DNA of 64,000 nt from Agaribacillus aureus. Lineage in GTDB: Bacteria > Bacteroidota > Bacteroidia > Cytophagales > Cyclobacteriaceae. Every line of letters starts with the position of its first letter. The first letter of the stretch is position 1. The stretch covers positions 1,054,001 to 1,118,000 of the forward strand of contig JAUJEB010000001.1 of the NCBI GenBank assembly GCA_030442055.1. The letters run 5' to 3'. The translations under genes were made by a program, and so were the position numbers. The notes under the pieces were generated by a model, which was not told where the DNA came from, ran no database searches, and saw only the letters and a list, made by a program, of their open reading frames with translations. Of this stretch, positions 12,767-46,588 are shown piece by piece.

Positions 12767-13738
12767 CTATTCTGTGATTTTAGCCACGTCTTGTACGAAC
12801 TGCGGTGTCCTGGGTTCTCCCTGGAAAAAACTCCCCTTTTTTCCCATAGATAATGCCCACCGGTCTATCCAGGAAATACCGGCCTTGCCAACAAACGTGT
12901 CTTCACTTTCATACACCTTATCAGTTAGGGCCTTTTCCAGGCTTATAAAATCGTAATTTCTTTTATTCATTCTGGCCAATAAAGGGTCTAAATAATCGGC
13001 ATTTAGCTGGTTGGCGTGAATAAGCAGGATCTGCTTTATTTCATAATTCCATAGCTTTTTAGACTGTCCCTCAAAATAAGCTGTTTTTTCTTCCATATAA
13101 TCGACATAGGCCATCCCTATTTTTTTCATCATGGTGGAATCCTTTTCCATAAAAGCAATTTCATAGGCTCTCGCAAAAATCCACTCAGAATTATCAATGG
13201 TGACAGGGGCAACCTCGTACCCCTTTTCCGCGAGGAACTTTTCCAGCGCTACCTTTTTCTCCTGGCTATTTCCAACATGTAAATACGGATGCCGGAAATA
13301 TTTCAAGCGTTGATTTTGGGCTGAAAGGATTTTTTTGGTAACTTTTTCCCCTTCCAAAACATCCGTTTTGTATTCGTCTATGGTAACGTTATTGTAGTCG
13401 GCATGACTATACCCATGATTTCCTAATTCCATACCATTATCTATCCATTTTTGCAGCAACGACACCTCCTGTTCAGACAATTGGCCTTTTTTGTAAAGCT
13501 TAGACTCATTGACAAAACCTATACCTGGCACCTCGTGGTTTTTTAATGCCTGTAAAATTTTTTCCGTTATATACATGCGATGTGAAAATTCCCGGACTAT
13601 CGAGTTGACGGGTAAATCATCAATGGTAACAGCCATCAATCTTTTACCTGTCTTCCCGTTGCCTGCCGGTGGGTCTTGGGCGAGGCCATTATCAATCATC
13701 GCAAAAAACAAAACAAGCGCTAAAAAAATACTTTTCAT
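12767..13738 (-). CDS. Secreted polysaccharide deacetylase
   Basis: The start at 13738 gives a 323-residue protein with a clean signal peptide (to about residue 20, NGLAQ). An in-frame upstream ATG at 13759 falls inside a dispersed repeat. The NodB fold signatures are visible: TIDD (Asp40-Asp41), the metal-binding His108-x3-His112 of NHGYSHAD, the YFRHPYLHVG motif, and the C-terminal LLIHANQLN motif. The family removes acetyl groups from chitooligosaccharides or peptidoglycan with a metal cofactor. A role in polysaccharide use or wall modification is inferred; the substrate is not determined. The 135 bp around and upstream of the start is a repeat shared with 46455-46588. Confidence 0.88.
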   Translation of the reverse strand: MKSIFLALVLFFAMIDNGLAQDPPAGNGKTGKRLMAVTIDDLPVNSIVREFSHRMYITEKILQALKNHEVPGIGFVNESKLYKKGQLSEQEVSLLQKWIDNGMELGNHGYSHADYNNVTIDEYKTDVLEGEKVTKKILSAQNQRLKYFRHPYLHVGNSQEKKVALEKFLAEKGYEVAPVTIDNSEWIFARAYEIAFMEKDSTMMKKIGMAYVDYMEEKTAYFEGQSKKLWNYEIKQILLIHANQLNADYLDPLLARMNKRNYDFISLEKALTDKVYESEDTFVGKAGISWIDRWALSMGKKGSFFQGEPRTPQFVQDVAKITE

Positions 13739-13870
13739 GTGTTTATAATTTATTTTCATTGGTCATATGGAACCTTTGATGCTTGTTATAATCATTCCTT
13801 TGCGCCTCCGCTAAAGCTATGGCTACACGCGGTATAAGCTTAATAATTATATCAAGCATGTCGGTTTCAT
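13736..13870 (-). repeat. Start-codon-abutting repeat, copy A
   Basis: Read on the minus strand, this runs from ATGAAACCGACATGCTTG (from 13870) through CCGCGTGTAGCCATAGC and TTTAGCGGAGGCGCAAAGG to AAATTATAAACACATGAAA, which includes the start codon of the deacetylase gene. It matches 46455-46588 at roughly 92 percent, with about 9 substitutions and one single-base indel. The rest of the 13739-14023 gap shows no gene. Confidence 0.8.
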
Positions 13871-14023
13871 ATGGACAAAAATGGTTTTCGAAGGTTTAAA
13901 GTAATGTTTAATCATGATAAAAAATTGAATAAATATTAAAAATTCACGACTCAAAATGAAACAAAACACCCGCTAATTCCTTTAAATACTTTACAGGTCT
14001 TCGATTTTTATCCCTAAATCCGC

Positions 14024-14725
14024 ATGAAAAGACTGATTTTTATAGTGGCTCTTACCCTGATTACCCATTTGATGACGGTTGCGCAGTTTAAGATGTTAGG
14101 TACTTCGCGCGACATGGGCAATGGTTGCATTCAATTGACACCTAATGTCGCTTACAGCGAGGGGTTGGCCTACAGCTATGCGAAATTGGATCTTTCGGAA
14201 AATTTTCAAATAGAATTTGATATTTTTTTAGGCGACAAAGAAAACGGCGCGGATGGTATTACTTTTGTCATTCACAATGACGAAAGAGGTTTTAATGCTT
14301 TTGGCAACTGGGGAGAATGCATGGGATACGGCCGGTTTAACCCCAATTATCCAGGTAATTGTATTGATCCGTCCATAGCTGTTGAATTTGATACCTATCA
14401 AAATCCCAACCAAAACGACCCTTCATCCGATCATGTGGCTTTCCTTGAAAATGGTAGCAGTCGCCATTATCAATATTGGAACAATGATGACCTGGCGTTC
14501 AATCTGGAGGACAACAGACTGCATAATTTCAGATTCCGCTGGGAACACGAGCAACAAAGAATTTCGGTCTCACTGGATGGTATGCTGGTCTATCAAGGTC
14601 GAAAAGACCTTATTAATGACATTTTCCAGGGGAAAACCAAAGTCATATGGGGTTTTACCGCTTCCACAGGGCGCGCTCATAATTTGCAATACTTTTGCCT
14701 GCGAAGATTGGCCAGCGCTAAATAA
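14024..14725 (+). CDS. Exported L-type (legume-lectin-like) lectin-domain protein
   Basis: The 233-residue protein has a signal peptide (to about residue 20, TVAQ) and consists of one legume-lectin-like beta-sandwich. Visible hallmarks are ADGITFVIHND (76-86), the metal-site strand AVEFDTYQNPNQND (119-132) followed by D136 of SSDHVAF, and HNFRFRWEHEQQRISVSLDG near the C-terminal half. Carbohydrate binding with Ca/Mn is expected for the family. No sorting domain or anchor follows, so it is probably periplasmic or released. It is convergent with the CHAP-protein gene. Confidence 0.85.
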   Translation: MKRLIFIVALTLITHLMTVAQFKMLGTSRDMGNGCIQLTPNVAYSEGLAYSYAKLDLSENFQIEFDIFLGDKENGADGITFVIHNDERGFNAFGNWGECMGYGRFNPNYPGNCIDPSIAVEFDTYQNPNQNDPSSDHVAFLENGSSRHYQYWNNDDLAFNLEDNRLHNFRFRWEHEQQRISVSLDGMLVYQGRKDLINDIFQGKTKVIWGFTASTGRAHNLQYFCLRRLASAK

Positions 14726-14792
14726 CAATAGACACAAGGTTTTGCCTTTGGCAACTTTACCACTTAATCTTCCGCCAGGGATAGTTTTCTAT

Positions 14793-15587
14793 TTAAACCT
14801 TCAACGAAAACACATCAATATTTTTGCGCCGGAAATTGCGCATTCTGCTACAGACTTCAAACCCTTCCCGAACACCCTCATCGTTGGTGTTGCCTTCAAT
14901 AGTATGAAACCAATCTCCTTCCCTATCTATGATCAAACCGGTATGGATCCAGTCCCTGGGATTTTTAACGATTAAAAACAGATCTCCCGGCTGGACAGCA
15001 TCAACATGCCCTTGCCTAAGAAGGCGGTTTCTTATCAGGTTTTGATTATTCTGTCCGTGAAAGCCAACAACGTCGCAACTGTAAGTGTGAGGAATGTGAT
15101 CAGTAAATTTTTGGTCAATCGTGGAAAAAGCCATGTCTAAAACCGCCTGAACGAAACCCATACACCAAGCCCAGGGCGAGCCTTCATTGCCATCCATATA
15201 CGACCGCACCCACGGACCTTCATTATTGTTATTAAGTTCGCGCGGAATATTTTTAAGATGCTGTTCGCCATAATGCACAATTAGCTTTCTGATATCTCTC
15301 CCGGTTTTTAGCTTATAAGCATTAGCCAATGGGCTGGTCAATACCTGGTAAGTAGCAACATTTACGATGCCGGTGGCTGGCAACTTTTTAAGTGTTTGAA
15401 AGGCGTGAACCGCATTTTTGGTTTGAGGCCCAAAGTCTCCGTCGATGGTCACGATATTGGTCCAACGGGGCTCCACATACCGCCAAAGATTCAGCCATTC
15501 CTGTATTTTTTTTACCTGGTTTCCTTTGGCGCCCTTCCGCACAGTGCTTTTTAAGGTTAATTCTTTTTTATAGTGTTTTTTTATCAT
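14793..15587 (-). CDS. Peptidoglycan-binding / CHAP-like amidase-endopeptidase
   Basis: The 264-residue protein pairs a PG_binding_1 repeat (about residues 18-85; GDFGPQTKNAVHAFQ) with a C-terminal papain-like domain. In that domain the catalytic Cys142 of SPWAWCMGFVQ, His215 of DWIHTGLI and the polar EGNTN (231-235) form a plausible CHAP/NlpC triad. No signal peptide is visible, which is phage-lysin-like and odd for a wall hydrolase; it must be released by lysis, a holin or another route, or act on other substrates. It starts 69 bp after the end of the 607-residue gene on the same strand and may be the last gene of that operon. Confidence 0.8.
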   Translation of the reverse strand: MIKKHYKKELTLKSTVRKGAKGNQVKKIQEWLNLWRYVEPRWTNIVTIDGDFGPQTKNAVHAFQTLKKLPATGIVNVATYQVLTSPLANAYKLKTGRDIRKLIVHYGEQHLKNIPRELNNNNEGPWVRSYMDGNEGSPWAWCMGFVQAVLDMAFSTIDQKFTDHIPHTYSCDVVGFHGQNNQNLIRNRLLRQGHVDAVQPGDLFLIVKNPRDWIHTGLIIDREGDWFHTIEGNTNDEGVREGFEVCSRMRNFRRKNIDVFSLKV

Positions 15588-15656
15588 GCTGGTAGTTGTT
15601 AAGTTTCTATGTTTCTTCTGATGTATTTACTAATATTTACGTTTTAGGGCAAATGA

Positions 15657-17480
15657 TTAAGGCACACTTCCCGCCTCCCTGTTAAAGGTGATGGCACTAA
15701 GCGATAAAGGGATGCGCAAGCCAAAAAACCAATAGGCTTTGTCGCGATATACGTTATAGCCAAACCCTCCCTGTAAGTAATCCCTGAACACAGAACCGAC
15801 CAGGCCAAGCCCAATCTCTGGAACATCATCGTGATCAAAATCAAGCGCCGCTACATTGAGACCAATTCCCGGGTTGAAGGTACGGTTATAACCCATGCTT
15901 TTCCTGGATCCTTTTTTCAATAAGATGCTATATGAGGCCGACAGTTGGAATTTGCTATCTACGGTCTCCGATTCCGGGAGATCTGCAAAGATTAACCCTA
16001 CTACTGTTTTGATATGAGGCAACAGCTGAAATAACCTAAATCGCCGATGTTCCAAAACTTGTCTTTGCCGGGTACTATCGCCTGCAGCAATTCGCACAAG
16101 AATTTTATCGCCGGATTGCCTTCTTCCAGTCTTGGTAAGGGTAAATTCCGTTTTATCGGGTAAGCCGTCAATATCAAATTTGAATACCTCCTCACTTAAT
16201 TCCAACGCCGCCTCATTCAATTTCTTGAATCCGGTTAATTCCGTAAAAAGCGCTTTCGCCTTATTTATCAAATCCTTGATTCCCGTTTCCAAAAGTTCCG
16301 AGCAATGGACGATCGTATTACCCAGGTCATTAACTGCCAATCGTATGGCACTGGAACCTGTCTCGAAGCGACTGGCAAAATCCGTTCTCAAGTTTTTGGC
16401 CCGCTCAATAAGTTCTTCGGTCCTATTTTTAATTTGAGAGAGGTCGTCGTTGGTTTGAATTAAAAATGCAGTTGAGGAAGTGGTGAGGCTTCCTGTTTGG
16501 TACTTATTTTTCAGCCCTTTCAGAAAATCTACATAGCCTGTTATCTGCGATTTCAGGTCTTTTACGTCTCCTTTGGCAATGGCTTGTTGCTGTGTTAGTT
16601 CGTTATCTAAATTGTCAAGCCGTCCGCGAATGCTATCAGCACATTGGTTAAAGGTATCAATGATCTCCCTGATCATTTCGGGAGTGGTGAGTTGAATGTT
16701 TCTCAAAGCCCCCTTAAAACTGTTGCCATTAAAATTATTTGCCAAATGCTCAATGGATCTTAATGTTTCTTTTTGCTCCTGAGATAGATTTATGTTCCAG
16801 CGCTCTACCACAAATGCCTCACCTTCCGGATATTCGTCGAACCCTGGCAAATGAATAGGAGCGGTTGTCTTTCGTGTGTCCACCCAGGCACCGAGTTGTA
16901 CAAAAACACCGTGGTTTCTGGCAATAGAATCCAATGCAGCTTTTAATGCCATTGCTTCCTGTAATGCGCCGTCAAATAAAATACGGTAAGTTCCTGCCGT
17001 GCCTGCCTCCCTTGGAATGTTTGCCAGCTGTGAATTAAAAGTCTCCCTGAGCCTGGAACCTGGTGTCGCCAGGTTTATCAATCTTAAGGCGGGATCGCCT
17101 ATTCTTCGAAATACCGGTTGCAGCGTTTTACTATCCCGCAGGCTATCGGGAGTACGGGACCAGCTTAGCAGGGAATCCTGTAAGGGCGCTAATGCCGCCA
17201 AACCGTCTACTGCGATATTTTGCAGGACAGAAATTCTGTTTATGATCTCAGCAGACAAAGGGGTTACGTCCAGTTGGGCAAACAAGACCTTTCGCAACGC
17301 ATCTTTATCGATTGTTATCTCTACACGGCTGTTAATATCAAAAGCTGCTATCTGTCTCAAAGAATCGGCTACCACACGATCGTCATCGTCATATTCCGTA
17401 AATTTCAATATAGATTGACCAGATGCCTGAGAGAAGACCAATAGGGAAACACCTAACATTACCAGAAAAAAATACCTCAT
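15657..17480 (-). CDS. Hypothetical exported protein with coiled-coil-like middle
   Basis: I do not recognise the family. The 607-residue protein has a signal peptide (MRYFFLVMLGVSLLVFSQ, cleavage near ASGQ). A long helical, charged middle (about residues 240-420) has heptad-like stretches, and the C-terminal ~120 residues alternate beta strands with glycines and aromatics, ending in a short barrel- or sandwich-like region. It overlaps the 130-codon gene before it by 4 bp (ATGA), so translation is coupled. With the CHAP protein downstream this looks like a three-gene unit. Envelope location is inferred; no function is proposed. Confidence 0.7.
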   Translation of the reverse strand: MRYFFLVMLGVSLLVFSQASGQSILKFTEYDDDDRVVADSLRQIAAFDINSRVEITIDKDALRKVLFAQLDVTPLSAEIINRISVLQNIAVDGLAALAPLQDSLLSWSRTPDSLRDSKTLQPVFRRIGDPALRLINLATPGSRLRETFNSQLANIPREAGTAGTYRILFDGALQEAMALKAALDSIARNHGVFVQLGAWVDTRKTTAPIHLPGFDEYPEGEAFVVERWNINLSQEQKETLRSIEHLANNFNGNSFKGALRNIQLTTPEMIREIIDTFNQCADSIRGRLDNLDNELTQQQAIAKGDVKDLKSQITGYVDFLKGLKNKYQTGSLTTSSTAFLIQTNDDLSQIKNRTEELIERAKNLRTDFASRFETGSSAIRLAVNDLGNTIVHCSELLETGIKDLINKAKALFTELTGFKKLNEAALELSEEVFKFDIDGLPDKTEFTLTKTGRRQSGDKILVRIAAGDSTRQRQVLEHRRFRLFQLLPHIKTVVGLIFADLPESETVDSKFQLSASYSILLKKGSRKSMGYNRTFNPGIGLNVAALDFDHDDVPEIGLGLVGSVFRDYLQGGFGYNVYRDKAYWFFGLRIPLSLSAITFNREAGSVP

Positions 17481-17869
17481 ACTATATCGGACTCAGCTTT
17501 AATAAAAGATTCTAAAATTCGAGACATATCCGGTTCCGGGTCGGTAGTCAATATCAAATCTCTCACCGTATCAGAGAAAGACAGGGAAAATGCCAGTGCA
17601 TTCTGAAAGTTTGCCACCAGTTGCATGTTATTTTGCAATAATGCCACGACTTCTTCAATTTGATTAGGTCTTCTTGCCCAGATTACCCATCGGGGTTCGT
17701 CCATCGCGCCGGTCATTTTATCAGCCCGCTGTACCAGCCGCTGGGCGGCATCACTTCTTCCCAGGACTACTAAAAGCACCAGAGGTTCATCAAATATTAA
17801 TTCGGACAGCATATCAATGGCGTCTTTTTTACTATCCGTTGGTAAAATGGTTGTTTTGAAAAGTGACAT
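17477..17869 (-). CDS. Small hypothetical protein coupled to the 607-residue exported protein
   Basis: The 130-residue product is soluble with no signal peptide or transmembrane segment, and I know no family for it. It has a hydrophobic strand (EPLVLLVVLGRSDAAQRL) and an RWVIWARRPNQIEEVVALL stretch suggestive of a small alpha/beta fold. Its stop overlaps the next start by 4 bp, so it should be made together with that exported protein. The 590 bp upstream (17870-18459) holds no convincing gene, only intergenic sequence shared with the divergent gluconolactonase gene. Confidence 0.65.
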   Translation of the reverse strand: MSLFKTTILPTDSKKDAIDMLSELIFDEPLVLLVVLGRSDAAQRLVQRADKMTGAMDEPRWVIWARRPNQIEEVVALLQNNMQLVANFQNALAFSLSFSDTVRDLILTTDPEPDMSRILESFIKAESDIV

Positions 17870-18459
17870 ATTTTATTAGGTTTTGTATTTAATAAGAAAT
17901 TGCCATAGAAAGCCGGTAATCCGGTTATAACCCAGGCCGTGTTATGACTGAAAATGTAAAAATCTATTTTTGTCTTGGGTAACCTGGTTTGGGTGGTAAA
18001 ATTATTTCCATGTGCCGGTAAGTAAATTTGTTTAAAACATCGCAATGGCCCTTCAGCCAATAGTTTTCCCTCCTGTTGTCACCTGTTGCGACGACAATTT
18101 ATAAAATTACCGCCAGGAATAAAATCAACCTATCTGTGATCATTCCATGTTAAAACCTCTCTATCTCGATAACCCGTGACCGCACCTGCCATCAACACCC
18201 GGTTACCTTAGACAGGGATCACTCTTTGCCTTGATGGATTTTAGCTTTAAAGAAGTATTTCGGAATTGTCAACTTTTAATCTTATTCCGCCAAAGTATCA
18301 GCTTTGTCCAGCAGGTACAGCTATAATATACTTAATATAAATCTTCAAAAATCGTAACCCAACCGTTTAAGATGATTAAGTATTTGTACAAAAACAATTG
18401 GTCGATTCCATTTTCGCTCAAATCTCCCTATATTCACCGCTTTATCAAACTGCTTTTTT

Positions 18460-19503
18460 ATGAACAAGCCTACCCTGATTTTCAGCATTCTGTTTTTATT
18501 GCAGGCCTGTAGCTCTCCCAAGCAAAATAAGGATAACGAAGAGCCTAGAGTAGACGAGGTAACAGCCTCCTATCGCACCACCGGATCTGTTGAAAGACTG
18601 CATGATGAAGTTAATCAATTGATTCCGGCCAATGCGCAAATAGAGATTTTAGCAGAGGGTTTCACCTGGTCTGAAGGCCCCTTGTGGCTGGCCGAAGAAA
18701 AAATGCTTGTATTCTCCGATGTTCCAGAAAATACTGTTTACAGCTGGAAGGAAGGGGAAGAAAAAGCCATTTACCTGCAGCCTTCAGGTTATACGGGTCA
18801 AGCTCCAAGAGCAGGAGAAACCGGCTCCAACGGCTTATTATTAAGCCCTGACGGTAAATTGGTATTATGCCAACACGGCGATCGCCGGGTAGCTACTATG
18901 CAGGCGCCGTTGGCGACACCTCAAGCCACATTCTCTACGTTGGCAGATAATTGGGAAGGCAAAAAATTCAACAGTCCAAACGATGCTGCTTTCCATCAAA
19001 ATGGTGATTTATATTTCACAGACCCACCATATGGCTTACCCAAACAGGCAGAAGATACGACCAGGGAAATTGATATTCAAGGGGTATACAGGCTGGATAA
19101 AACCGGGTCCACAATTTTATTAACTGATGAACTCACCCGGCCCAATGGTATTGCCTTTTCGCCAGACTATAAAACACTTTATGTCGCCAATTCCGATTCG
19201 AAAAAGGCCATTTGGATGGCCTATGATGTAAAAGAAGATGGCACCTTAGACAACGGAAGGGTCTTCTTTGACGCTACCGACATGACGGCGGAAAGAAAAG
19301 GGCTTCCGGATGGCTTAAAAGTAAATCCAAACGGCTATATTTTTGCCACAGGGCCTGGTGGTGTATTGCTGTTCGACCCAGAAGGAAAGCATTTGGGTAC
19401 TATCTTAACAGGACAAGCTACGGCTAACTGTGCCTTTGACGACGAGTACAATTACTTATACATCACGGCAGATATGTACCTGATGCGTATTAAATTACAA
19501 TAA
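18460..19503 (+). CDS. SMP-30/gluconolactonase-like lipoprotein
   Basis: The 347-residue protein has a lipoprotein signal (LLQACSS). Its mature part is a six-bladed beta-propeller of the SMP-30/gluconolactonase/LRE family: LAEGFTWSEGPLWLAEEKML, NSPNDAAFHQNGDLYFTDPPYGL, LTRPNGIAFSPDYKTLYVANSD and GLPDGLKVNPNGYIFATGPG carry the expected divalent-metal ligands (Glu, Asn, Asp). The family hydrolyses lactones; here a periplasmic sugar-lactone role is likely. Its last 14 bases overlap the end of the convergent membrane-protein gene. Confidence 0.9.
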   Translation: MNKPTLIFSILFLLQACSSPKQNKDNEEPRVDEVTASYRTTGSVERLHDEVNQLIPANAQIEILAEGFTWSEGPLWLAEEKMLVFSDVPENTVYSWKEGEEKAIYLQPSGYTGQAPRAGETGSNGLLLSPDGKLVLCQHGDRRVATMQAPLATPQATFSTLADNWEGKKFNSPNDAAFHQNGDLYFTDPPYGLPKQAEDTTREIDIQGVYRLDKTGSTILLTDELTRPNGIAFSPDYKTLYVANSDSKKAIWMAYDVKEDGTLDNGRVFFDATDMTAERKGLPDGLKVNPNGYIFATGPGGVLLFDPEGKHLGTILTGQATANCAFDDEYNYLYITADMYLMRIKLQ

Positions 19504-19897
19504 CAAAGTACAGATAAAAGCTGGCTGCCAACAAAATCAATTTAAACAACGCTGCCCACAAGTTAGTTTTATTGGGAAACCATTGATGAAGGAGTTTGCC
19601 AATTTCTCCGTCATTCCCCTGATTTAATGCCGGTTTACCAAGCACCAGTACATTAATTAGTGCCGGGTTAATAATAGCGTAGGCTGCCGCCATCAATATC
19701 ACGAGACTTAGCAGTGCCCAACTAAAACTTTCATATCGCAGGGCAATGGCCACGAAAAACAACCAACGCATCGGAGCAATAGCCTGAAACAATATTTTAT
19801 CCGTTTTTTGAAATACGTAATAAATCATCCAGGTTTCTGCCAGGGCGACCAGCAGTAACTCTATAAAAAATCCATATGAATGATACCAGTTAGCCAT
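19490..19897 (-). CDS. Small integral membrane protein, unknown function
   Basis: The 135-residue protein has about four hydrophobic segments (residues 10-27, 40-55, 60-85 and 112-133) and no recognised family motif. Its 3' end overlaps the convergent gluconolactonase gene by 14 bp. It is followed by no terminator on this strand that I can see. Confidence 0.65.
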   Translation of the reverse strand: MANWYHSYGFFIELLLVALAETWMIYYVFQKTDKILFQAIAPMRWLFFVAIALRYESFSWALLSLVILMAAAYAIINPALINVLVLGKPALNQGNDGEIGKLLHQWFPNKTNLWAALFKLILLAASFYLYFVIVI

Positions 19898-19988
19898 TAG
19901 TTATATTGTTTGTTTTCCGGGATATATTTAAGAAAACTAAGGTCAAAATCCAATGACTTTCGCTGGTTCTTTTCTTTTTACGACGGTA

Positions 19989-20807: not shown

Positions 20808-21160
20808 GATATAGACTGGTTAGTTAATTCCTTTCCAATGATCTGGTACTTATAATCTAACAATAGCTGGGTAAGGGTGGTTCAAAGTAATGTAAGTTGT
20901 AGAAAGTCGCCGGATAATTCTGATTTTTTTACCCCTCTCCTCCTGTGGCGAGAATACCTTGCTGCACCCTTTAATTTTTATATATAGCTCACCCTTTTTA
21001 CTAAAAATGCTTTTCAATATATTAATTAATACAGCCAAATTCAAGTTATTCGAATTCTGATTAATGATTTAATCTGATATAACAGATAAATTTCACGAAA
21101 AAAAGCCCGCCATCAGGCGGACTTTTTTTAAACTCAACAACTTATATTTTTATCTTTTAC
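20808..21160. other. Intergenic stretch with one bidirectional terminator
   Basis: Apart from the terminator at 21098-21129 I see no gene. A 64-codon minus-strand frame at 20850-21044 has no coding character. The region should hold the promoter of the PAS-LuxR gene. Confidence 0.5.
21098..21129 (-). terminator. Bidirectional intrinsic terminator after the beta-barrel gene
   Basis: The stem CCGCC-atca-GGCGG is flanked by seven A on the left and seven T on the right, so it can act on both strands. It lies 32 bp past the stop of the minus-strand beta-barrel gene. Confidence 0.85.
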
Positions 21161-37113: not shown

Positions 37114-37121
37114 TATATCGC

Positions 37122-38483: not shown

Positions 38484-38521
38484 AAAAGTTGTTATAAGTA
38501 ATCAAAACGTTTAAAACGTGG

Positions 38522-38529
38522 CAAAATTA
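38522..38529 (-). promoter_or_regulatory. Candidate -7 element of the nqr operon
   Basis: TAATTTTG on the minus strand fits TAnnTTTG and lies 38 bp before the nqrA start. No clear -33 TTTG is seen at the expected spacing, so support is moderate. Confidence 0.4.
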
Positions 38530-38755
38530 ATAAAAATTTGAACAATAAAAATTTAATTAATGGGATTTAAATATTATTTAGAATAATTGTAAAAACGATT
38601 GTTAACGGAATAGGCTCGGGGAGTTGGAGTGTGGGTGTGAGCGGTGGTTAGATCCGACGCTTTTGGCTTCAATTAAACTAAAAGAATCCATGTTGTTTAC
38701 CACTCAAAATACCGGCACCAACTGATCATTCCTCCGCGAACCATCTCTGCTCCTA

Positions 38756-39652: not shown

Positions 39653-39663
39653 AATATAGCTGT

Positions 39664-40341
39664 TTAATTAATTATTTTTTCCGCCAGTCGCACAATTTGA
39701 TCGATTTGCTCCTCCATTGTCAATTTTGTGGTGTCGATAACATAAGCATCGTCGGCTTTCTTAAGAGGGCTTTCAGACCTGGTAGTATCGATGGCATCCC
39801 TGTGCTGTAAATTTTTTTTCACCTCATCAAACGTGATCATTTCACCTTTTTCCAGCAATTCGCGTTGACGCCTTTCCGCTCTTACGTCAAAATCAGCCGT
39901 CATGAAAATTTTCAATTCCGCATCCGGAAAGACAAAAGATCCGATATCTCTGCCGTCCATGACTACAGCCTTATTTTTTCCCAATTTCCTCTGCTGCTCA
40001 ACCATTGCTTTCCTTACCTTCGCAAGGGCACTTACTTCACTGACTTTCATGGAAACATCCATCCTTCTAATTTCTTTTTCAACATTCAATCCATTCAAAT
40101 AAGTTTCATTTGTTCCGGTTGCCGGATTGCATTTAAAGCTTATATGGATTTGATCGAGGGCTTTTTCTACGTTTTTAGGATTGGTGAGGTTAATATAGTT
40201 TTGGATAAAAAACAATGTTACGGCACGGTACATGGCACCAGTATCAATATAAATATACCCTAATCTGGAAGCTACTTCCTTAGCGGTAGAGCTTTTCCCA
40301 CAAGCAGAATAGCCATCCACAGCTATTACGATTTTTTTCAT
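39664..40341 (-). CDS. cmk: Cytidylate kinase
   Basis: The 225-residue protein has the P-loop GYSACGKSSTA, the substrate motif DGRDIGSFVFPDAELKIFMT and the lid RAERRQREL. It phosphorylates CMP and dCMP. It is the first gene of the cmk-ispH pair. Confidence 0.96.
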   Translation of the reverse strand: MKKIVIAVDGYSACGKSSTAKEVASRLGYIYIDTGAMYRAVTLFFIQNYINLTNPKNVEKALDQIHISFKCNPATGTNETYLNGLNVEKEIRRMDVSMKVSEVSALAKVRKAMVEQQRKLGKNKAVVMDGRDIGSFVFPDAELKIFMTADFDVRAERRQRELLEKGEMITFDEVKKNLQHRDAIDTTRSESPLKKADDAYVIDTTKLTMEEQIDQIVRLAEKIIN

Positions 40342-40451
40342 CCAGGATAAAAAAACGACAACATTTAATACAGCAAGCTTTCAATTTGCTCGCAAATATA
40401 ATATAATATTGATAGCTTTAGTAGATGAAGTAATATATTCCGGTATATTCC

Positions 40452-40589
40452 TTAACAATCCTTTGTAGGGCACGGAATAGGCTTATTTTTTTTGAGTTTT
40501 TTACCCCGGTGCTGGGTGGAAGAACAAGCCGTAAAAAGCGATGACAAAACGATCAATACTGTTAATATAATACTTATTTTCTTTTTCAA
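40452..40589 (-). CDS. Small lipoprotein (45 residues)
   Basis: From the TTG at 40589 an open frame of 45 codons encodes a lysine-rich start (KKKIS), a hydrophobic stretch (about 6-19) and a lipobox FTAC (Cys21), then a basic tail with KKLKKNKPIPCPTKDC at the end. Two extra cysteines near the C-terminus could form a disulfide. I know of similar short Bacteroidota lipoproteins with a PCP...C tail but cannot name a family. No ATG start exists in frame, which lowers confidence. It lies in the gap between cmk and the adenine deaminase gene. Confidence 0.55.
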   Translation of the reverse strand: MKKKISIILTVLIVLSSLFTACSSTQHRGKKLKKNKPIPCPTKDC

Positions 40590-40747
40590 AGCGTTCGTTG
40601 TTATGATTGATGGGTACAAATATAACCTGATTTTAATAAGCTAATTTTTAATACTTCTTATAAATTCACACACGTAAGAACATAACCGCGAATCACCGGG
40701 GATTATTGTACATTTACGCCCTTAAACTATTAACTGAAATAAGCATT

Positions 40748-42382
40748 ATGGATAACAACTTCAGCATCTCCGGTCATATCATTGACATTTTGGGGGAAAG
40801 GATTTATAAAGGGGAAATTTCCGTGGCGAATGGCCGCATAGCCGGCATCAGGGAAACGGCGGAAGTTGAAGATCAATATTTATTGCCAGGCCTTATCGAT
40901 TCACATGTTCATATTGAAAGTTCCATGTTGGTGCCATCGGAGTTTGCCAGGCTATCGGTAGTTCACGGTACAGTAGCCACTGTTTCCGATCCGCATGAAA
41001 TAGGTAATGTCCTGGGGGTGGAAGGGGTAAAATATATGATTGAAAATGGGAAAGAGGTAGATTTCAAATTTTTCTTTGGCGCCCCCTCCTGCGTACCGGC
41101 CACCACTTTCGAGACGGCTGGGAAAACTATTACACCCAATGAAATTGACCAGTTGTTATCCATGAAGGAAGTTAAGTATCTGGCGGAAATGATGAACTGG
41201 CCCGGTGTGCTGGGTCAGGATCCTCTGGTAATGGAGAAATTAGCCGTAGCCAAAAAACACCAAAAGGTAATAGACGGGCACGCCCCTGGCCTGAGGGGTG
41301 AGATGGCACTTGATTACATCAAAGCCGGCATATCCACCGATCATGAATGTTTTACGAAGGAGGAAGCATTAGACAAACTGGCGCACGGCATGAAAATCAT
41401 CATCCGTGAAGGAAGTGCCGCCAAAAACTTCGAGGCACTTATCCCTTTATTGAGCGACTATGAAAACGAAATTATGTTTTGCTCGGATGACAAACATCCG
41501 GACAACCTCGTTGAAGGCCATATTAACCAACTGGTAAAAAGGGCACTGGCAAAAGGCATCGGCTTATTTAAGGTATTAAAGGCAGCCTGCGTCAATCCCG
41601 TTCGTCATTACGGACTCGAGGTCGGACTGCTCAAAGCAGGGGATCCGGCAGATTTTATTGTGATCGATCACCCCGAAACTTTTAAAATTATCCAAACTTT
41701 CATTAACGGGAAATTGGTTGCAGAAAATGGGGAAACCCGTATTGAATCGGTACAAAACCCTATTATTAATAACTTCTCTATCCAGCCGTTGCAACCAGCT
41801 GCACTTAAGTTACACGCTAAAGGCACCAAAGTAAACGTTATTGAAGCATTGGATGGCCAGTTGATCACCAACAGGTTAAAAGTTCCGTGTTCTGTTGAAG
41901 ATGGTTTTATGGTATCAAATGTTGAGGAAGATATATTAAAGCTGGTGGTTATCAACCGGTATCAGGCGGCTTCACCTGCAATCGCCTTTATCAAGAATTT
42001 TGGCTTGAAATCCGGGGCTATTGCTTCATCGGTTGCTCATGATTCCCATAATATCATCGCCGTGGGGGTAGACGATGACAGTTTGTGTCGGGCTGTTAAC
42101 TTAATTATTGAAGAAAAAGGAGGTGTTTCGGCGGTGGGCCAGGAAGAAGAAAGAGTGGTGCCCCTGCCTGTAGCTGGGTTAATGTCCCCGCTGGATGGCT
42201 ATGAAATTGCGAGGGATTATGCTTCTATAGACAATTTTTCCAAAAAACTGGGAAGCAGTCTCAACTCGCCATTTATGACACTTTCTTTTATGGCTTTGTT
42301 GGTGATTCCTTCCTGTAAATTAAGTGACAAGGGTTTGTTCGATGGAGAGAAATTCGAATTTATAAAACTTTTTGAGGCATAA
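40748..42382 (+). CDS. ade: Adenine deaminase
   Basis: The ATG at 40748 (MDNNFSISGHIID) gives 544 residues; the earlier start at 40706 adds 14 residues with no family support. This is an amidohydrolase-fold enzyme with the metal motif DSHVHIESSM, then DPHEIGNVLG, DGHAPGLRG, STDHECFTKEEA, CSDDKHPDN and a C-terminal ADE domain (AVGQEEERVVPLPVAGLMS). It converts adenine to hypoxanthine in purine salvage. The next gene begins 39 bp after it. Confidence 0.95.
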   Translation: MDNNFSISGHIIDILGERIYKGEISVANGRIAGIRETAEVEDQYLLPGLIDSHVHIESSMLVPSEFARLSVVHGTVATVSDPHEIGNVLGVEGVKYMIENGKEVDFKFFFGAPSCVPATTFETAGKTITPNEIDQLLSMKEVKYLAEMMNWPGVLGQDPLVMEKLAVAKKHQKVIDGHAPGLRGEMALDYIKAGISTDHECFTKEEALDKLAHGMKIIIREGSAAKNFEALIPLLSDYENEIMFCSDDKHPDNLVEGHINQLVKRALAKGIGLFKVLKAACVNPVRHYGLEVGLLKAGDPADFIVIDHPETFKIIQTFINGKLVAENGETRIESVQNPIINNFSIQPLQPAALKLHAKGTKVNVIEALDGQLITNRLKVPCSVEDGFMVSNVEEDILKLVVINRYQAASPAIAFIKNFGLKSGAIASSVAHDSHNIIAVGVDDDSLCRAVNLIIEEKGGVSAVGQEEERVVPLPVAGLMSPLDGYEIARDYASIDNFSKKLGSSLNSPFMTLSFMALLVIPSCKLSDKGLFDGEKFEFIKLFEA

Positions 42383-42421
42383 TCAAGTCCTATAAGGTGA
42401 GTACAAGTAATTTAACATAAA

Positions 42422-42706
42422 ATGGAAGATCAAAAACAAGGGAGCGCTGAAAAGCTTTTCAAGAATTTCGGAAAAAAAATTGATGAACTGATTGACAAGG
42501 CTAAAAATAACAGTGACAACCTCGATCAGCGATTTGAAGATGGGATGGCAGAGATGAAAAAAAATTGGGATAAATTCGACAGTGAAGTAAAAAATTTCAC
42601 GGAAGAGCACAAAGACAAATTCCAGGAGGTTGGTATTCAAATAGAAAAAGCAGCGCAAGAATTAAAAAAAGCAGTGGAAGCCGCCTTTTCTAAAAACAAA
42701 AACTAA
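42422..42706 (+). CDS. Small charged helical protein
   Basis: The 94-residue protein is almost entirely helical and charged: repeated K/E pairs with aromatic residues every 7-11 positions (KLFKNFGKKIDELIDK, WDKFDSEVKNF). No signal or membrane segment. It may be a coiled-coil or apolipoprotein-like cytosolic protein. It starts 39 bp after ade and may be co-transcribed; function unknown. Confidence 0.7.
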   Translation: MEDQKQGSAEKLFKNFGKKIDELIDKAKNNSDNLDQRFEDGMAEMKKNWDKFDSEVKNFTEEHKDKFQEVGIQIEKAAQELKKAVEAAFSKNKN

Positions 42707-42729
42707 ATTGGCCCAAACGTTAGCCGCGT

Positions 42730-42746
42730 TAAGGTTTAAAACCTTA
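42730..42746. repeat. Near-perfect palindrome after the small helical gene
   Basis: TAAGGTTT-A-AAACCTTA forms 8-bp arms around one base. This kind of palindrome is frequent between genes in Bacteroidota and may be a weak terminator or a REP-like unit; no T run follows. Confidence 0.4.
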
Positions 42747-42861
42747 GATACCGCCAATTTTCCGTTTAAATAATTAGCATTGATGAAAAGTGCAAAATTT
42801 TATTTTTTAGTAAAAAATTAAATATTCAGTCAGGGACAAAACCTCAAAACATCGTACGTAT

Positions 42862-43575
42862 ATGACCAGGATTATTGAAACTAAGGAAATTTCAAGAGTT
42901 TATCAAATGGGAAGCGAAACCATTAATGCCCTGGTTTCTGTTTCCATCAGCATCAACAAAGGGGAATATGTGGCTTTTATGGGACCTTCCGGTTCGGGTA
43001 AATCGACGCTGATGAATATCATTGGCTGCCTGGATACGCCTTCGTCTGGCACTTATATTTTAAATAATAACGATGTAAGTGACTTAACGGAAAATGAGCT
43101 GGCGGAAATACGTAACAAAGAGATTGGCTTCGTTTTTCAAACTTTCAATCTTTTACCCAGAGCCAGCTCATTGGAAAATGTGGCACTTCCGCTAGTTTAT
43201 GCCGGCTTAAGTAAATATGACCGGGAAGAAAGAGCACTGGCAGCCTTGGATAATGTAGGCTTGGCCGACAGGGCCAGCCATAAACCCAACGAATTATCGG
43301 GCGGGCAGCGCCAGCGAGTGGCTATTGCCAGAGCCCTGGTTAATGATCCCAGTATCATATTGGCCGACGAACCAACCGGAAACCTTGACTCAAAAACCTC
43401 CTATAGCATTATGGATTTATTCCAGGAGTTACACGATAAGGGAAATACCATCATTATGGTTACGCATGAGGATGACATTGCCCACTACGCCCATCGTATC
43501 GTGCGGCTGCGCGATGGGTTGATCGAAAAAGACGAAATGAATGAAAGCGTCAGCAATACCCGCCCTGTGAGCTAG
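42862..43575 (+). CDS. LolD/MacB-type ABC transporter ATP-binding protein
   Basis: The 237-residue ATPase has Walker [10 protein letters not shown], the Q-loop region [18 protein letters not shown], the signature [15 protein letters not shown], Walker [12 protein letters not shown] and the H-loop VTHEDD. The family partners FtsX-type permeases, several of which exist in this window (2078, 50774) but none next door. It is the sort of shared ATPase that could serve such orphan permeases (inference). Confidence 0.93.
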
Positions 43576-43608
43576 GAAAAAAATAACCAACAGACCGCAA
43601 CACCTTCT

Positions 43609-43640
43609 TTTGATTGGCAGTTAAATTTTGAATATACTTG
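43609..43640 (+). promoter_or_regulatory. Promoter before the corrinoid adenosyltransferase
   Basis: TTTG at 43609-43612 is followed after 20 bases by TATACTTG (43633-43640), one base off the TAnnTTTG box. The ATG is at 43709. Confidence 0.45.
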
Positions 43641-43708
43641 CTTGTAAAAAGGAGGCACCATATAGCGGTTTCAAATAATGCTTCCATCAAAAAATCTGGC
43701 AAAATACC

Positions 43709-44266
43709 ATGAAGATATATACTAAAACCGGCGACAAGGGAACTACCGCCTTATTGGGCGGTACAAGAGTTGCTAAATCCCACGTAAGGATAGAGGCTTA
43801 CGGCACTATAGACGAATTAAATTCCCATATTGGATTAGTCAGTGATCAGGCAGTGAATGCCAAACGCATAACAATGCTGCGTGAAATTCAGGATAGATTA
43901 TTTACCATTGGCGCAACATTGGCTTCCGACCCTGAAAAGTCAAAAGTGGAAATACCTGATTTATTGGAAAGCGATGTCAGCCGGCTGGAAGAAGACATAG
44001 ACTCCATGACCGCTGAGCTTCCGGAAATGAGATCCTTTATTTTGCCGGGGGGGCATCCTGCGGTCTCATACTGTCATATTGCCCGATGTGTTTGCCGCAG
44101 AGCGGAAAGACTGGCCATCGGCCTGAGCCAGGATGAGTTTGTCGCCGCGTTGGTCATCAAATATTTAAACCGGCTTTCCGATTACCTTTTTGTATTGTCC
44201 AGAAAAATGGCTCAGGAGCTGGAAGTAGACGAAATTCCCTGGAGGCCGAGAGAAAAAAAACCCTGA
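43709..44266 (+). CDS. PduO-type cob(I)alamin adenosyltransferase
   Basis: The 185-residue enzyme has TKTGDKGTTALLGGTR (ATP loop), HVRIEAYGTIDELNSHIGL and the C-terminal YLNRLSDYLFVLSRKMAQ with the RRAER element before it. It attaches adenosyl to cobalamin to make coenzyme B12. No B12-dependent enzyme lies beside it here. Its last codons contain the terminator of the opposite gene. Confidence 0.93.
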   Translation: MKIYTKTGDKGTTALLGGTRVAKSHVRIEAYGTIDELNSHIGLVSDQAVNAKRITMLREIQDRLFTIGATLASDPEKSKVEIPDLLESDVSRLEEDIDSMTAELPEMRSFILPGGHPAVSYCHIARCVCRRAERLAIGLSQDEFVAALVIKYLNRLSDYLFVLSRKMAQELEVDEIPWRPREKKP

Positions 44267-44286
44267 AGCGATGAGGCCTCAGGGTT
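44253..44286 (-). terminator. Terminator of the secreted unknown, inside the 3' end of the adenosyltransferase gene
   Basis: AACCCTGA (44259-44266) pairs with TCAGGGTT (44279-44286) and is preceded on the plus strand by a run of A, giving T8 on the minus strand. The stem overlaps the last codon and stop of the + gene, so the two convergent ends share it. Confidence 0.75.
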
Positions 44287-44306
44287 CTAAAAGATTTTTT
44301 TATGTC

Positions 44307-45836
44307 TTAGAATGTAAGTGACTCCAAACCAATATTTACGGTTTTGTTCTTTCTATCATAGGCGTAAATACATGTATGTCCTGCTTTACCTCTCAATGCG
44401 CCGGTCTTGGCATTTTTGGGATCTCCGACAACCATTTTCAGCTTTTTAGACATCGGGATCTTTTTGGTCTCCGACTCCTCTCCCCTGGCAATAGTAGATA
44501 TGCCCACATAGGGTTTTCCCGAGCCAAGCTTGGCACCTTCCCAGTTGGTGTACACGATGGCCGGTTTGCCCGAATCCGGTAAGGTGGTTACGTACTCAAA
44601 AGTAAACATGTTGAACCGCTTCAAATAATACGCCAGTGAAACACCACCAGCGCTGGCAATGGCCCCGTCCACGTAAATAGATTTATATGGCTTTTCAATT
44701 TTGTTAATGTCAAGTGGTTTTCCATTGTCATCATAGTTGAAAATAATATAATCCATTACGGTAAAACCCATGGGTGCCGTGCTGGAGCCACTTGCTGCTG
44801 CCAACAATGTACCTGCTTTCACCGTTTTCCTGAATGTTTCGGCAATTACCTGGTAACTTCCACCGGTTTTAGTGATCTCATGGAAAAGCACTTTTGGTTT
44901 GGAACCAATGCTAAACTTCCTCGATGTCGCTTTAAGAGCGTGTTTGATGCCATTATCCCAATCAATATTGTTAAAGGCAAGCTTCTTCCCTTCCGGTGAT
45001 AATTTCAGAAAGAATATCCCGTCGGAGTTAACCTGCTGCCATTTGCTTCCTTCAAAATACATGCCGGCAGTCACAATATTGCCATTTGGTTCCACCAGGA
45101 AAGCCGAGGGCAGTCCGGTGATTTGCCCATTGTATAAATCGTATTCGAATTGTTTTGTACCATTGCTGTCGTCAAAACTCACTAGTTTTCCCAATACTTT
45201 TTTGGACATCAGGGTGGGTTTTTCAATGGTTATTAACAAGAGCTTATTGTTGCCGGCCTCGGCAGCCTCAATGCCAACATAACCCCTGTCCCTGGTCACT
45301 GTCTCTTCCCAAACCGTATTTAAATCACGATCGATTTTTTCAACTGAATAGCCCCATTTCTTCTCTTTTACGGCGGAAGTTACGTAAAATCCGTTCCCAT
45401 CTGTCCCGGGAAATACCTTCATTGAATTGGCCGTGGCAAATTTTCGATGTTTTCTGTCCTCTCTTTTAATAACATTGCCATCACTATCGATAGTAATAAA
45501 TGTGTTTAATTTCTTGCTGGCATCGGAAAAAATGAAAAGAAAATCCTTTCCATTGTACTCGGACCCAATTAATGCTGATCGTTTAGTTACGGTAACAGGG
45601 GTTTGTTTGAGCAGGTTTAAGTCTAAATCCAAAATGTCAAGATTTAGGGTAACCATCCCCTTTTTCAGCTTCTCACTTAAATAATAAGTATAATAACCTA
45701 CGGCCTTATCGCCGTTAGTAATGGACTCCACACCCCTGAAATGCAGGGGCTTTACGCCAGTAATTTGATATTGCTGCGCGTTTACGGTGGTAATTACACA
45801 AAAAAATAACGTGCTTAAGATAATTGTTTTTCTCAT
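44307..45836 (-). CDS. Hypothetical exported protein (DUF6770-like)
   Basis: The 509-residue protein has a signal peptide (LFFCVITTVNAQQ). The body has beta-propeller-like or WD-like repeats of the type LDLNLLKQTPVTV, NGFYVTSAVKEKKWGYSVEKID, GNIVTAGMYFEGSKW and IFNYDDNGKPLDINKIEK. I recall such a family (DUF6770) in Bacteroidota but am not certain of the match. Function unknown; probably periplasmic. Confidence 0.7.
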   Translation of the reverse strand: MRKTIILSTLFFCVITTVNAQQYQITGVKPLHFRGVESITNGDKAVGYYTYYLSEKLKKGMVTLNLDILDLDLNLLKQTPVTVTKRSALIGSEYNGKDFLFIFSDASKKLNTFITIDSDGNVIKREDRKHRKFATANSMKVFPGTDGNGFYVTSAVKEKKWGYSVEKIDRDLNTVWEETVTRDRGYVGIEAAEAGNNKLLLITIEKPTLMSKKVLGKLVSFDDSNGTKQFEYDLYNGQITGLPSAFLVEPNGNIVTAGMYFEGSKWQQVNSDGIFFLKLSPEGKKLAFNNIDWDNGIKHALKATSRKFSIGSKPKVLFHEITKTGGSYQVIAETFRKTVKAGTLLAAASGSSTAPMGFTVMDYIIFNYDDNGKPLDINKIEKPYKSIYVDGAIASAGGVSLAYYLKRFNMFTFEYVTTLPDSGKPAIVYTNWEGAKLGSGKPYVGISTIARGEESETKKIPMSKKLKMVVGDPKNAKTGALRGKAGHTCIYAYDRKNKTVNIGLESLTF

Positions 45837-45885
45837 GTCTGTTCGTAAAAAAATATTTGGTTAATTGCCAAATCTATTTTTGTTC

Positions 45886-46452
45886 ATGGGAAAGAAAAAT
45901 AAAATACCGTGCCTTATAGTACTCGTATTATCATTTGGCCCCTTTTGCTCAAAAGCGCAGGAAGAGGAATCTCTGCGGTTTACTTACAATGGTGATGATG
46001 CTAAAATCGCCCAATTGACAAAGCAAAACATGCATTTTGGGTCTGCGGCATACGGTTTCATTGCCGATGAGGAAGGGATCGCGTTTCCTTATTTGATAAC
46101 GCTTAATTACGAATATGGAACCAGGTTACTTGAATTAGGCGAAATCGCCGGCATTTCCCTCAACTTTAATCCTCATATTGCTATAACACACTTTTTCGTT
46201 GGTCGTATCAGCGGTTCAGCTAACCTGAACCTTTTCAATTACGCCACAGAATCCTCCGATCAAAAACTGGGATTTTTCGCAGGTATTGGCTATGAATACT
46301 TTGGGTCATCCTTTGGGGTCAATGATCTGTACCCGGTGGTGAGAGGTGGGTTTATTTTTGACAATTTCAGATTATTATTTCAAAACGGCATCCAAACCGA
46401 CTTTGAACCTGGTAAATACCTTGTTTCGGTGGGTGCCAAAATCGATTTATAA
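45886..46452 (+). CDS. Exported protein with outer-membrane barrel-like strands
   Basis: The start at 45886 (MGKKNKIPC) gives 188 residues with a signal peptide ending near CSKAQ. Glycine- and aromatic-rich strands follow (YLITLNYEYGTRL, GFFAGIGYEYFGSSFG, KYLVSVGAKIDL at the end), consistent with a small outer-membrane beta-barrel. The 133 bp to the next gene are entirely occupied by repeat copy B. No family name recognised. Confidence 0.65.
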   Translation: MGKKNKIPCLIVLVLSFGPFCSKAQEEESLRFTYNGDDAKIAQLTKQNMHFGSAAYGFIADEEGIAFPYLITLNYEYGTRLLELGEIAGISLNFNPHIAITHFFVGRISGSANLNLFNYATESSDQKLGFFAGIGYEYFGSSFGVNDLYPVVRGGFIFDNFRLLFQNGIQTDFEPGKYLVSVGAKIDL

Positions 46453-46454
46453 CC

Positions 46455-46588
46455 ATGAAACCGACATGCTTGATATAATTATTAAACTCACACCGCGTGT
46501 CGCCATAGCTTTAGCGGCGGCGCAAGGGAATGATTATAGCAAGCATCAAAGGTTCCATGTGACCGAAAAAATAAATTATAAACACATG
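46455..46588 (+). repeat. Start-codon-abutting repeat, copy B
   Basis: Starts 2 bp after the stop of the previous gene and ends in the ATG of the YwqK-repeat gene, so it fills the gap. It matches 13736-13870 in inverted orientation at about 92 percent. An in-frame reading (MLDIIIKLTPRVAIALAAAQ...) joins the downstream gene here but ends early in copy A because of a one-base indel. It is therefore unlikely to be a conserved protein. Confidence 0.8.

What the first reader, a model, noticed from the sequence alone, without database searches (positions are those of the whole stretch)
13736..46588. A ~134-bp repeat ending exactly at two start codons, 32.6 kb apart
Copy A (13736-13870, minus) and copy B (46455-46588, plus) are about 92 percent identical and in inverted orientation. 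Each ends in AAATTATAAACACATGAAA, where ATG is the start of an unrelated gene for an exported protein (deacetylase and YwqK-repeat protein). Copy B fills the gap between two genes completely. The core contains CCATAGCTTTAGCGG, which recalls REP-like sequences. A mobile 5'-UTR or promoter module that retargets envelope genes is one reading; a duplicated leader is another. It is not explained by any gene call.
Basis: seen in the sequence. Interest (0 to 1): 0.7.

Follow-up and report, generated by a model that had tools for sequence, protein, structure and literature searches.

The report
Mobile hairpins that land on start codons
Short hairpin-forming DNA pieces that look mobile sit exactly at the first codon of many genes in this bacterium and its relatives, and each brings a replacement start signal and start codon, so the gene stays readable while its translation start region is exchanged.

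Summary
The repeat is real and belongs to a large family. The two window copies (124 of 135 aligned columns identical, flanks unrelated) are 2 of about 80 in this 9.39-Mb genome (85 right-end hits, 2 for the reversed control). A copy runs from one ATGAAA to the next (88-287 nt): stem-loop, TTCCATSTGACC box, A/T-rich initiation region, ATGAAA. 66 of 72 outermost copies with a box open an ORF of at least 80 aa; of 100 intergenic ATGAAA sites without element, 43 are starts (p = 1e-11). Copies stack head to tail, up to four at one gene in relatives. A same-genus genome lacks the element at the orthologues of two genes. 39 of 148 same-family genomes have right-end matches (15 with five or more), and the whole structure recurs in other families of the class. 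The box base S covaries with the base before the ATG, so an internal guide appears to pair with the start site. Best reading: a non-autonomous, single-strand-type mobile element that targets ATGAAA and regenerates the start codon. The mobilising enzyme was not found; effects on expression are inferred. Exported proteins are common among the targets but not exclusive.

The parts
13736..13870 (-). Copy A of the start-codon element, from the old (left) ATG to the new (right) ATG of the polysaccharide deacetylase gene
   Evidence: homologous site without element in same-genus G009, L249
13863..13870 (-). Left end of copy A, ATGAAACC (retained target; old start codon by inference)
   Evidence: G009 gene starts at the corresponding place
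13842..13859 (-). Left arm of main stem, copy A
   Evidence: fold; coordinates
13779..13796 (-). Right arm of main stem, copy A
   Evidence: fold; coordinates
13764..13772 (-). Guide box TTCCATATG, copy A (consensus TTCCATSTG; differs at the S base, so it does not match the C before its ATG)
13739..13751 (-). Supplied initiation region AAATTATAAACAC, directly before the deacetylase ATG (13736-13738)
12767..13738 (-). Downstream gene of copy A, polysaccharide deacetylase (323 aa)
46455..46588 (+). Copy B of the start-codon element, from left ATG to the ATG of the YwqK/MORN_2 gene
46455..46462 (+). Left end of copy B, ATGAAACC
46466..46483 (+). Left arm of main stem, copy B
46529..46546 (+). Right arm of main stem, copy B
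46553..46561 (+). Guide box TTCCATGTG, copy B
46573..46585 (+). Supplied initiation region AAATTATAAACAC before the ATG at 46586-46588
46586..47578 (+). Downstream gene of copy B, YwqK/MORN_2-repeat protein (330 aa)

Best explanation
It is a short non-autonomous mobile element that inserts at ATGAAA and is mostly found at gene starts. SHOWN: the unit ATGAAA-[stem-loop]-TTCCATSTGACC-N-AAATTATAAACAS-ATGAAA occurs about 80 times here and in many relatives; it opens ORFs far more often than intergenic ATGAAA sites do; copies stack by sharing the ATGAAA junction; sites without the element exist in the same genus, with the native ATG at the left boundary; the box base S covaries with the base before the right ATG, and the first stem pair covaries (C-G or T-A). 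INFERRED: on the strand opposite the gene the element reads 5'-TTTCAT|STG...CASATGGAA-[hairpin]-TTTCAT-3'. The guide CASATGGAA, next to the hairpin foot, can pair with TTTCATSTG at one end (9 bp, one G.T wobble) or with TTTCAT at the other. That is the layout of guide and cleavage sequences in IS200/IS605-type single-strand transposition, so a trans-acting HUH (Y1) enzyme is the likely mobiliser, and the guide explains the ATGAAA target. CONSEQUENCE, INFERRED: the old start codon becomes the start of a short leader ORF (here MKPSMT* or MKPTCLI*), and the gene restarts from the element's own A/T-rich initiation region and ATG, partly held in the box/ATG stem. Insertion at a start codon therefore spares the protein but replaces its translation control, which lets copies persist there.
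For: Copies: 85 vs 2; G101 198, G031 209, control 0. Anatomy: 68 of 88 places have an exact ATGAAACC left end at 88-287 nt; 84 of 88 right ends are ATGAAA although the search required only ATGA. Check free of the right-end pattern: of 42 hairpin hits that reach the box, 41 have a listed right end within 45 nt, and the 42nd is a second copy in L115 with a one-base-shorter right end, also at a gene start. ORFs: 66 of 72; strict parse 59 of 64 here, 57 of 74 in other genomes. Background 43 start: 57 other intergenic ATGAAA, p = 1e-11. Stacking. Sites without element: malate dehydrogenase and deacetylase in same-genus G009. Covariation of S: own G/C 48, C/G 11, G/G 2, C/C 6, four others (p = 6e-7); relatives 21, 24, 1, 5 (p = 1e-8). 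First stem pair C/G 67, T/A 67, 4 others, nearest left end taken blindly. RNAalifold on 68 copies returns only the box/ATG stem. Left flanks (60 non-tandem copies) are A-rich with peaks at -13/-12, as reported for Flavobacterium starts (PMC6847099, passages). IS200/IS605 guide logic: PMC6006769, passages.
Against: No transposase was found in or as the ends of any copy. None of the 7 Y1 genes of this genome or the 30 fetched Y1 loci of relatives has the element as its ends; a copy lies about 0.5 kb from one own Y1 gene (L041) and about 0.9 kb from one in G031 (L200), and two other loci (L212, L214) show a single motif. Strong Y1 hits are in 14 of 15 element-rich genomes against 75 of 133 others (p = 0.005), but one rich genome (G121) is not among the matches and relatedness is uncorrected. 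Some copies lie at ATGAAA sites that are not starts (L057, L063, L101) or in leaders (L047, L106, L113), more in G418, G121 and G031/G101, so the target is the hexamer and start enrichment may be partly survivorship. Most copies were ascertained with a pattern ending in ATGA, so ATG abutment itself is partly built in; the ORF test and one search are the safeguards. The mdh comparison is not clean: G009's native region (TAAATTGTAAATCACAAA-ATG) resembles the element's right end, so loss in G009 is possible. The tandem G.A pairs in the stem favour the gene strand, the G.T wobble the other.
Confidence: 0.7

Rival explanations
1. A cis-regulatory RNA (riboswitch-like leader): a structured element with a conserved core (near CACACAGNGGGATGATTAT) and a stem that holds the start codon, spread by duplication and kept for regulation.
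For: The core and the box/ATG stem are conserved in copies from several families of the class; in relatives a second stem with compensatory forms is seen (TGACG/CGTCA, GAGAA/TTCTC, TGAGG/CCTCA); the start codon is paired.
Against: Downstream genes share no pathway; copies stack up to 3-4 at one start; patchy between two same-genus genomes (72 vs 1); some copies are at ATGAAA sites that are not starts; no Rfam family at gathering score in the window and only sub-threshold hits on copy B.
Confidence: 0.12
2. A MITE of a classical DDE transposase with a 6-bp target duplication (ATGAAA).
For: Direct ATGAAA at both sides, short size, high copy number, no gene inside.
Against: The outer ends are not inverted repeats of each other: the left end pairs with a site about 35 nt inside the right end. 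The repeated hexamer hardly varies (84 of 88), whereas a duplication normally would.
Confidence: 0.08
3. An RNA-mediated or folded-recombination-site mechanism (reverse transcription of a leader RNA, or an integrase acting on a folded site).
For: Structured element in the sense orientation of the mRNA; right-end-only copies exist (L093, L117 and remnants left of tandem copies), as 5'-truncated retro-copies would look.
Against: The right end carries the gene's start and is expected to be kept by selection, so right-only remnants need no retro step. No reverse-transcriptase or integrase association was tested.
Confidence: 0.08
4. A duplicated leader spread by homologous recombination or gene conversion between 5' regions, without a mobility mechanism.
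For: Near-identical copies upstream of unrelated genes.
Against: Flanks of the copies are unrelated up to the ATGAAA boundaries, leaving no homology for exchange; stacked arrays; ends conserved between families.
Confidence: 0.02

Closest known systems
IS200/IS605 family (IS608, ISDra2) and their non-autonomous derivatives
   Same: Hairpin near the end; an internal guide next to the hairpin foot able to pair with the sequences at both ends; fixed target sequence; no terminal inverted repeats; target retained so that copies can stack.
   Different: No tnpA inside or as the neighbour ends of the copies examined; one hairpin seen instead of one at each end; proposed target is a hexamer (ATGAAA) coinciding with start codons; the element carries its own initiation region and start codon.
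REP / BIME elements mobilised by RAYT (TnpA-REP)
   Same: Many-copy palindromes, tandem arrays, possible Y1 enzyme in trans.
   Different: 88-287 nt instead of 20-40; no GTAG/CGTC tag; sits at 5' starts; does not flank the Y1 genes examined.
TAACTGA repeats of Beggiatoaceae (PMC4679880, abstract and outline seen)
   Same: Repeats within several nucleotides upstream of start codons, downstream genes of no common function, suggested role in translation.
   Different: Direct repeats of a heptamer, not an 88-nt or longer hairpin unit from ATG to ATG; the abstract names no transfer mechanism.
Correia repeat enclosed elements and other bacterial MITEs (recalled, no call)
   Same: Short mobile elements that alter gene expression from upstream.
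   Different: Terminal inverted repeats with TA duplication; not tied to the start codon (recalled).

Membership tests
IS200/IS605-type non-autonomous element | Subterminal DNA hairpin | tested here: met
   stem-loop in copies of each subfamily folded; first stem pair covaries. DNA folds of two of the three subfamilies are not much better than shuffles (z -0.3 to -1.7), the third is (z -3.5)
IS200/IS605-type non-autonomous element | Guide 5' of the hairpin foot able to pair with the flanking target and with the terminal sequence | tested here: met
   On the strand opposite the gene CASATGGAA lies 5' of the foot; S covaries; box/ATG stem is the alifold consensus. Met by sequence only, no biochemistry
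IS200/IS605-type non-autonomous element | Insertion next to a fixed target, no variable duplication | tested here: met
   84 of 88 right ends are ATGAAA; 68 of 88 exact ATGAAACC left ends, others mostly decayed
IS200/IS605-type non-autonomous element | Associated Y1 (HUH) transposase | tested here: inconclusive
   Strong Y1 hits in 14 of 15 rich genomes, but none of 7 own and 30 relatives' loci has the element as its ends
REP/RAYT | 20-40 nt palindrome with GTAG- or CGTC-type tag | tested here: not met
   88-287 nt, left end ATGAAA[C/T]C; the REP definition is from the abstract start of PMC3733652 in a search listing
REP/RAYT | Copies flanking a RAYT gene | tested here: not met
   the 7 Y1 loci of this genome do not have the element as ends; several carry other palindromes, by eye
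Classical MITE (DDE) | Terminal inverted repeats | tested here: not met
   Left end pairs with an internal site, not with the right end
Known structured RNA / riboswitch | Match to an Rfam family | tested here: not met
   0 at gathering in the window; only sub-threshold hits on copy B
Integron attC or other folded recombination site | Cognate integrase and core sites | not tested
   no integrase search made

The most novel reading that the evidence does not exclude
A class-wide family of self-guided mobile DNA in Bacteroidia that homes to start codons through an internal anti-start guide and carries a complete replacement initiation module, so that a host gene's translation control is exchanged without loss of the protein. 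Stacked insertions would give an evolvable series of expression settings across tens to hundreds of genes per genome.
Probability: 0.4. Interest if true: 0.9.

Novelty: new variant of a known kind. Interest (0 to 1): 0.77.

Why it matters
Mobile elements usually damage genes or sit between them. This one occupies the start codon and gives it back, so it can sit in core genes (malate dehydrogenase here, ribosomal protein L36 in one relative) without destroying them. If the guide model holds, a single-strand element with its targeting rule is written out in many genomes, with hundreds of natural guide and target examples. In a phylum that generally lacks Shine-Dalgarno signals it is also a natural experiment on what makes a start work: the element puts C at -3 (adenine there is a positive determinant in Flavobacterium, PMC6847099, passages) and pairs the start codon, which predicts lowered or conditional translation.

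Tried and rejected
Y1_Tnp as the cis partner: 7 own and 30 relatives' loci scanned, none with the element as ends (an ORF could be printed for only part of the 30, the motif scan covered all). The presence correlation is suggestive only.

Mobility through phages or plasmids: no match in viral contigs (exact pattern), plasmids or phages (only the relatives' version was tried there).

Rfam: nothing at gathering in the window; weak hits on copy B (best mir-218, E 0.0017, 23.5 bits against a cut-off of 62) taken as chance palindrome matches.

Leader-peptide attenuation as a general mechanism: the short leader ORF (6-7 aa here, 4 aa in some relatives) runs to 27-30 aa in many G034 copies, so it is not conserved.

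Tip palindromes as a separate repeat: none outside elements in 387 kb of own sequence; but a similar-looking palindrome stands upstream of one Y1 gene outside that set (L040, by eye), so the question is open.

Second stem of the core: 4 bp or more in 21 of 39 parsed relatives' and class copies but in 1 of 21 own copies; 8 of 68 were not parsed. Tentative.

Literature: searches gave nothing describing the element in the listings seen; this speaks for those six searches of an open-access library only. Seen: PMC6006769 and PMC6847099 passages, PMC4679880 abstract and outline; PMC3733652 and the rest from search listings only.

Useless calls: 39 and 72 used wrong coordinates; the third comparison (L048/L126) missed its anchor, so the homology of L048 and L126 is read by eye.

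Mended on re-check: the wider-family count, the second-stem numbers, the Y1 neighbours, the standing of exported targets, and two added calls (86, 87).
Full report
OBSERVATION. Copies A (13736-13870, minus) and B (46455-46588, plus) share 124 of 135 aligned columns, are inverted, and have unrelated flanks; they are the best repeat pair of the window. Each starts with ATGAAACC and ends with AAATTATAAACAC followed by the ATGAAA of a real gene: polysaccharide deacetylase and a YwqK/MORN_2 protein. Both fold into a long imperfect hairpin.

A LARGE FAMILY. A 137-nt query gave 61 BLAST pieces in the own genome (9.39 Mb, 36 contigs); the 40 best reach query position 136-137, that is, the ATGAAA end. 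The right-end pattern with up to 2 mismatches gave 85 places against 2 for the same pattern read backwards. I fetched all 85 plus 3 BLAST-only copies. Of these 88, 68 have an exact ATGAAACC left end 88-287 nt upstream, and 84 have ATGAAA at the right end. The commonest unit is 88-89 nt (22 of 68); longer forms carry palindromes nested in the hairpin tip. Two stem subfamilies occur here. Tandem copies join as ...AAATTATAAACAC|ATGAAACC.... Because the pattern ends in ATGA, I checked with a hairpin query that stops before the initiation region: of 42 hits that reach the box, 41 have a listed right end within 45 nt, and the other is a copy in L115 with a shortened right end, also at a gene start. 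One search scored 40 of 79 candidates, so it is not a full census.

POSITION. After dropping 16 of the 88 (no recognisable box, or internal members of tandems), 72 outermost copies remain; 66 open an ORF of at least 80 aa. The six exceptions are three in leaders just upstream of a gene (L047, L106, L113) and three at ATGAAA with no gene start (L057, L063, L101). Among ATGAAA sites without element in 387 kb of the same genome, 405 lie inside ORFs, 43 are starts and 57 are intergenic non-starts; 66:6 against 43:57 gives p = 1e-11 (crude ORF calling). A stricter parse gives 59 of 64 here and 57 of 74 in other genomes; of the 15 short cases there, some are tandem members whose next copy escaped the parse, one (L138) is ribosomal protein L36 with 38 aa, and others are non-start sites. 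So the sequence target appears to be ATGAAA; start codons dominate because of preference, survivorship or both.

SITES WITHOUT THE ELEMENT. The same-genus genome G009 has 1 match to the right-end pattern against 72 here. At malate dehydrogenase, G009 and the 27 other genomes searched show no element in the 170 nt before the start, by eye; the G000 left flank is homologous to the G009 upstream region. At the deacetylase (copy A), G009 has a homologous upstream region running into its ATGAAG at the place where copy A has its left ATG (the protein match itself covers residues 146-323 at 75 percent). Caveat: at mdh the G009 native region resembles the element's right end, so loss rather than gain cannot be excluded there. 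The one G009 copy (L126) lies at the orthologue of L048 and looks like a shared old insertion (by eye).

DISTRIBUTION. Right-end pattern, 1 mismatch: 39 of 148 same-family genomes match, 15 with at least 5 places, reversed control 2 in all. A slightly different pattern gave 198 and 209 places in G101 and G031 with 0 control hits. In 395 genomes of the class 71 match; single hits are near the control level (11 control hits by my count), but G418 (same family) 78, G402 28, G325 23, G162 13 and G258 11 stand out. Of 40 further loci, the strict parse finds elements in those of G418 (6), G121 (7), G325 (5), G402 (1) and G162 (1) and none in G258 and G509; by eye G258 and G509 loci do carry the structure with a variant or interrupted box, most G402 copies look decayed, and four G162 loci are a different, longer palindrome with a similar right end. 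The one named record is a Cyclobacteriaceae MAG (L124), which by contig number and position is handle G134 of the window's family; the window is therefore taken to be from that family.

STRUCTURE AND COVARIATION. In 68 copies of near-core length from own, family and class genomes the constants are ATGAAA, a core near CACACAGNGGGATGATTAT (less regular in G121 and G162 copies), TTCCATSTGACC and AAATTATAAACASATGAAA; the stems vary. The base S in the box and the base before the right ATG covary: own G/C 48, C/G 11, G/G 2, C/C 6, four others; relatives 21, 24, 1, 5. Copy A itself is one of the four others. The first base after ATGAAA and the base before TTCCAT covary: C/G 67, T/A 67, 4 others, with the nearest left end taken without regard to pairing. 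Related and tandem copies are not independent, but both S states occur within several genomes. RNAalifold's only consensus helix is box/ATG.

MECHANISM. On the strand opposite the gene the order is TTTCAT | STGTTTATAATTT ... GGTCASATGGAA [hairpin] TTTCAT. The segment CASATGGAA can pair with TTTCATSTG at one end (9 bp with a G.T wobble) or with TTTCAT at the hairpin foot at the other. Passages of PMC6006769 describe this principle for IS200/IS605: a guide 5' of the hairpin foot interacts with the target flanking the left end, and a similar interaction involves the final bases of the right end. The wobble may keep the guide from being a target itself (inference). The enzyme is unknown: strong Y1 hits are in 14 of 15 rich genomes against 75 of 133 others (p = 0.005), but no Y1 gene looked at has the element as its ends; two have a copy 0.5-0.9 kb away.

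EFFECT ON THE HOST GENE. Left flanks of 60 non-tandem copies are A-rich, with A at 0.57 and 0.60 at -13 and -12, 0.52 at -6 and 0.45 at -3; PMC6847099 reports A at these positions as positive determinants (passages). After insertion that region drives a short leader ORF, and the gene starts from the element's ATG, with A at -6, -12 and -13 but C at -3, and with the ATG inside the box stem. Reduced or conditional translation is predicted, not shown. Of 73 downstream proteins, 7 match SusD_RagB and 4 SusD-like_2; none of the 25 families shown of 109 is a transposase.

VERDICT. A mobile, start-codon-preserving element family: supported by copy number, boundaries, stacking and element-free sites; movement itself was not observed. 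Single-strand, guide-directed transposition in trans: likely, resting on layout and covariation. Exclusive envelope targeting: not supported. Not found in print in searches.

Noticed in passing
window 421-575, 4389-4563, 5601-5765: A second repeat family, about 150-165 bp direct repeats at roughly 78-82 percent identity.
   Followed up: no
window 57950-57986: A 37-bp near-perfect palindrome AAAAAGAGGTAGTAAA...TTTACTACCTCTTTTT, terminator-like.
   Followed up: no
window 12767-13759 (minus): In copies with GACCAATGAAAATAAATTATAAACACATG the element holds an in-frame ATG 7 codons upstream of the gene's ATG, so gene callers will extend such genes into the element.
   Followed up: partly
L041, L042, L044, L039 (own genome Y1 genes): Y1/RAYT-like genes carry their own palindromes (e.g. 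GCGCAGGTCCTCCGGTCCTGTGC), different from the start-codon element (by eye).
   Followed up: partly
L040, upstream of a Y1 gene: A palindrome resembling the nested tip palindromes of the long elements (GCGTTCGCATAAAGCTTTAGCGGTTGCGAAAGC; by eye).
   Followed up: no
L307, L308, L310, L311 (G162, another family): A multi-copy palindromic sequence of up to 144 nt with right end AAATTATATACAG|ATGAAA sits close to contig ends; it may be a related subfamily.
   Followed up: no
L193, L199, L201 (relatives): Short palindromes beside some Y1 genes read like GACCTCGAAGAGGTCACATGTTTATAG, sharing GGTCACATG and TGTTTATA with the element's opposite strand; possibly a hint to the mobiliser.
   Followed up: no
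own genome, right-end hits: Strand imbalance of copies (29 forward, 56 reverse; p = 0.005), not corrected for gene orientation.
   Followed up: no
L117, L093, and left neighbours in L055, L064, L070, L111: Right-end-only sequences directly before a start codon or a complete copy, consistent with loss of the hairpin while the initiation region is kept; L117 is at lpxB.
   Followed up: partly
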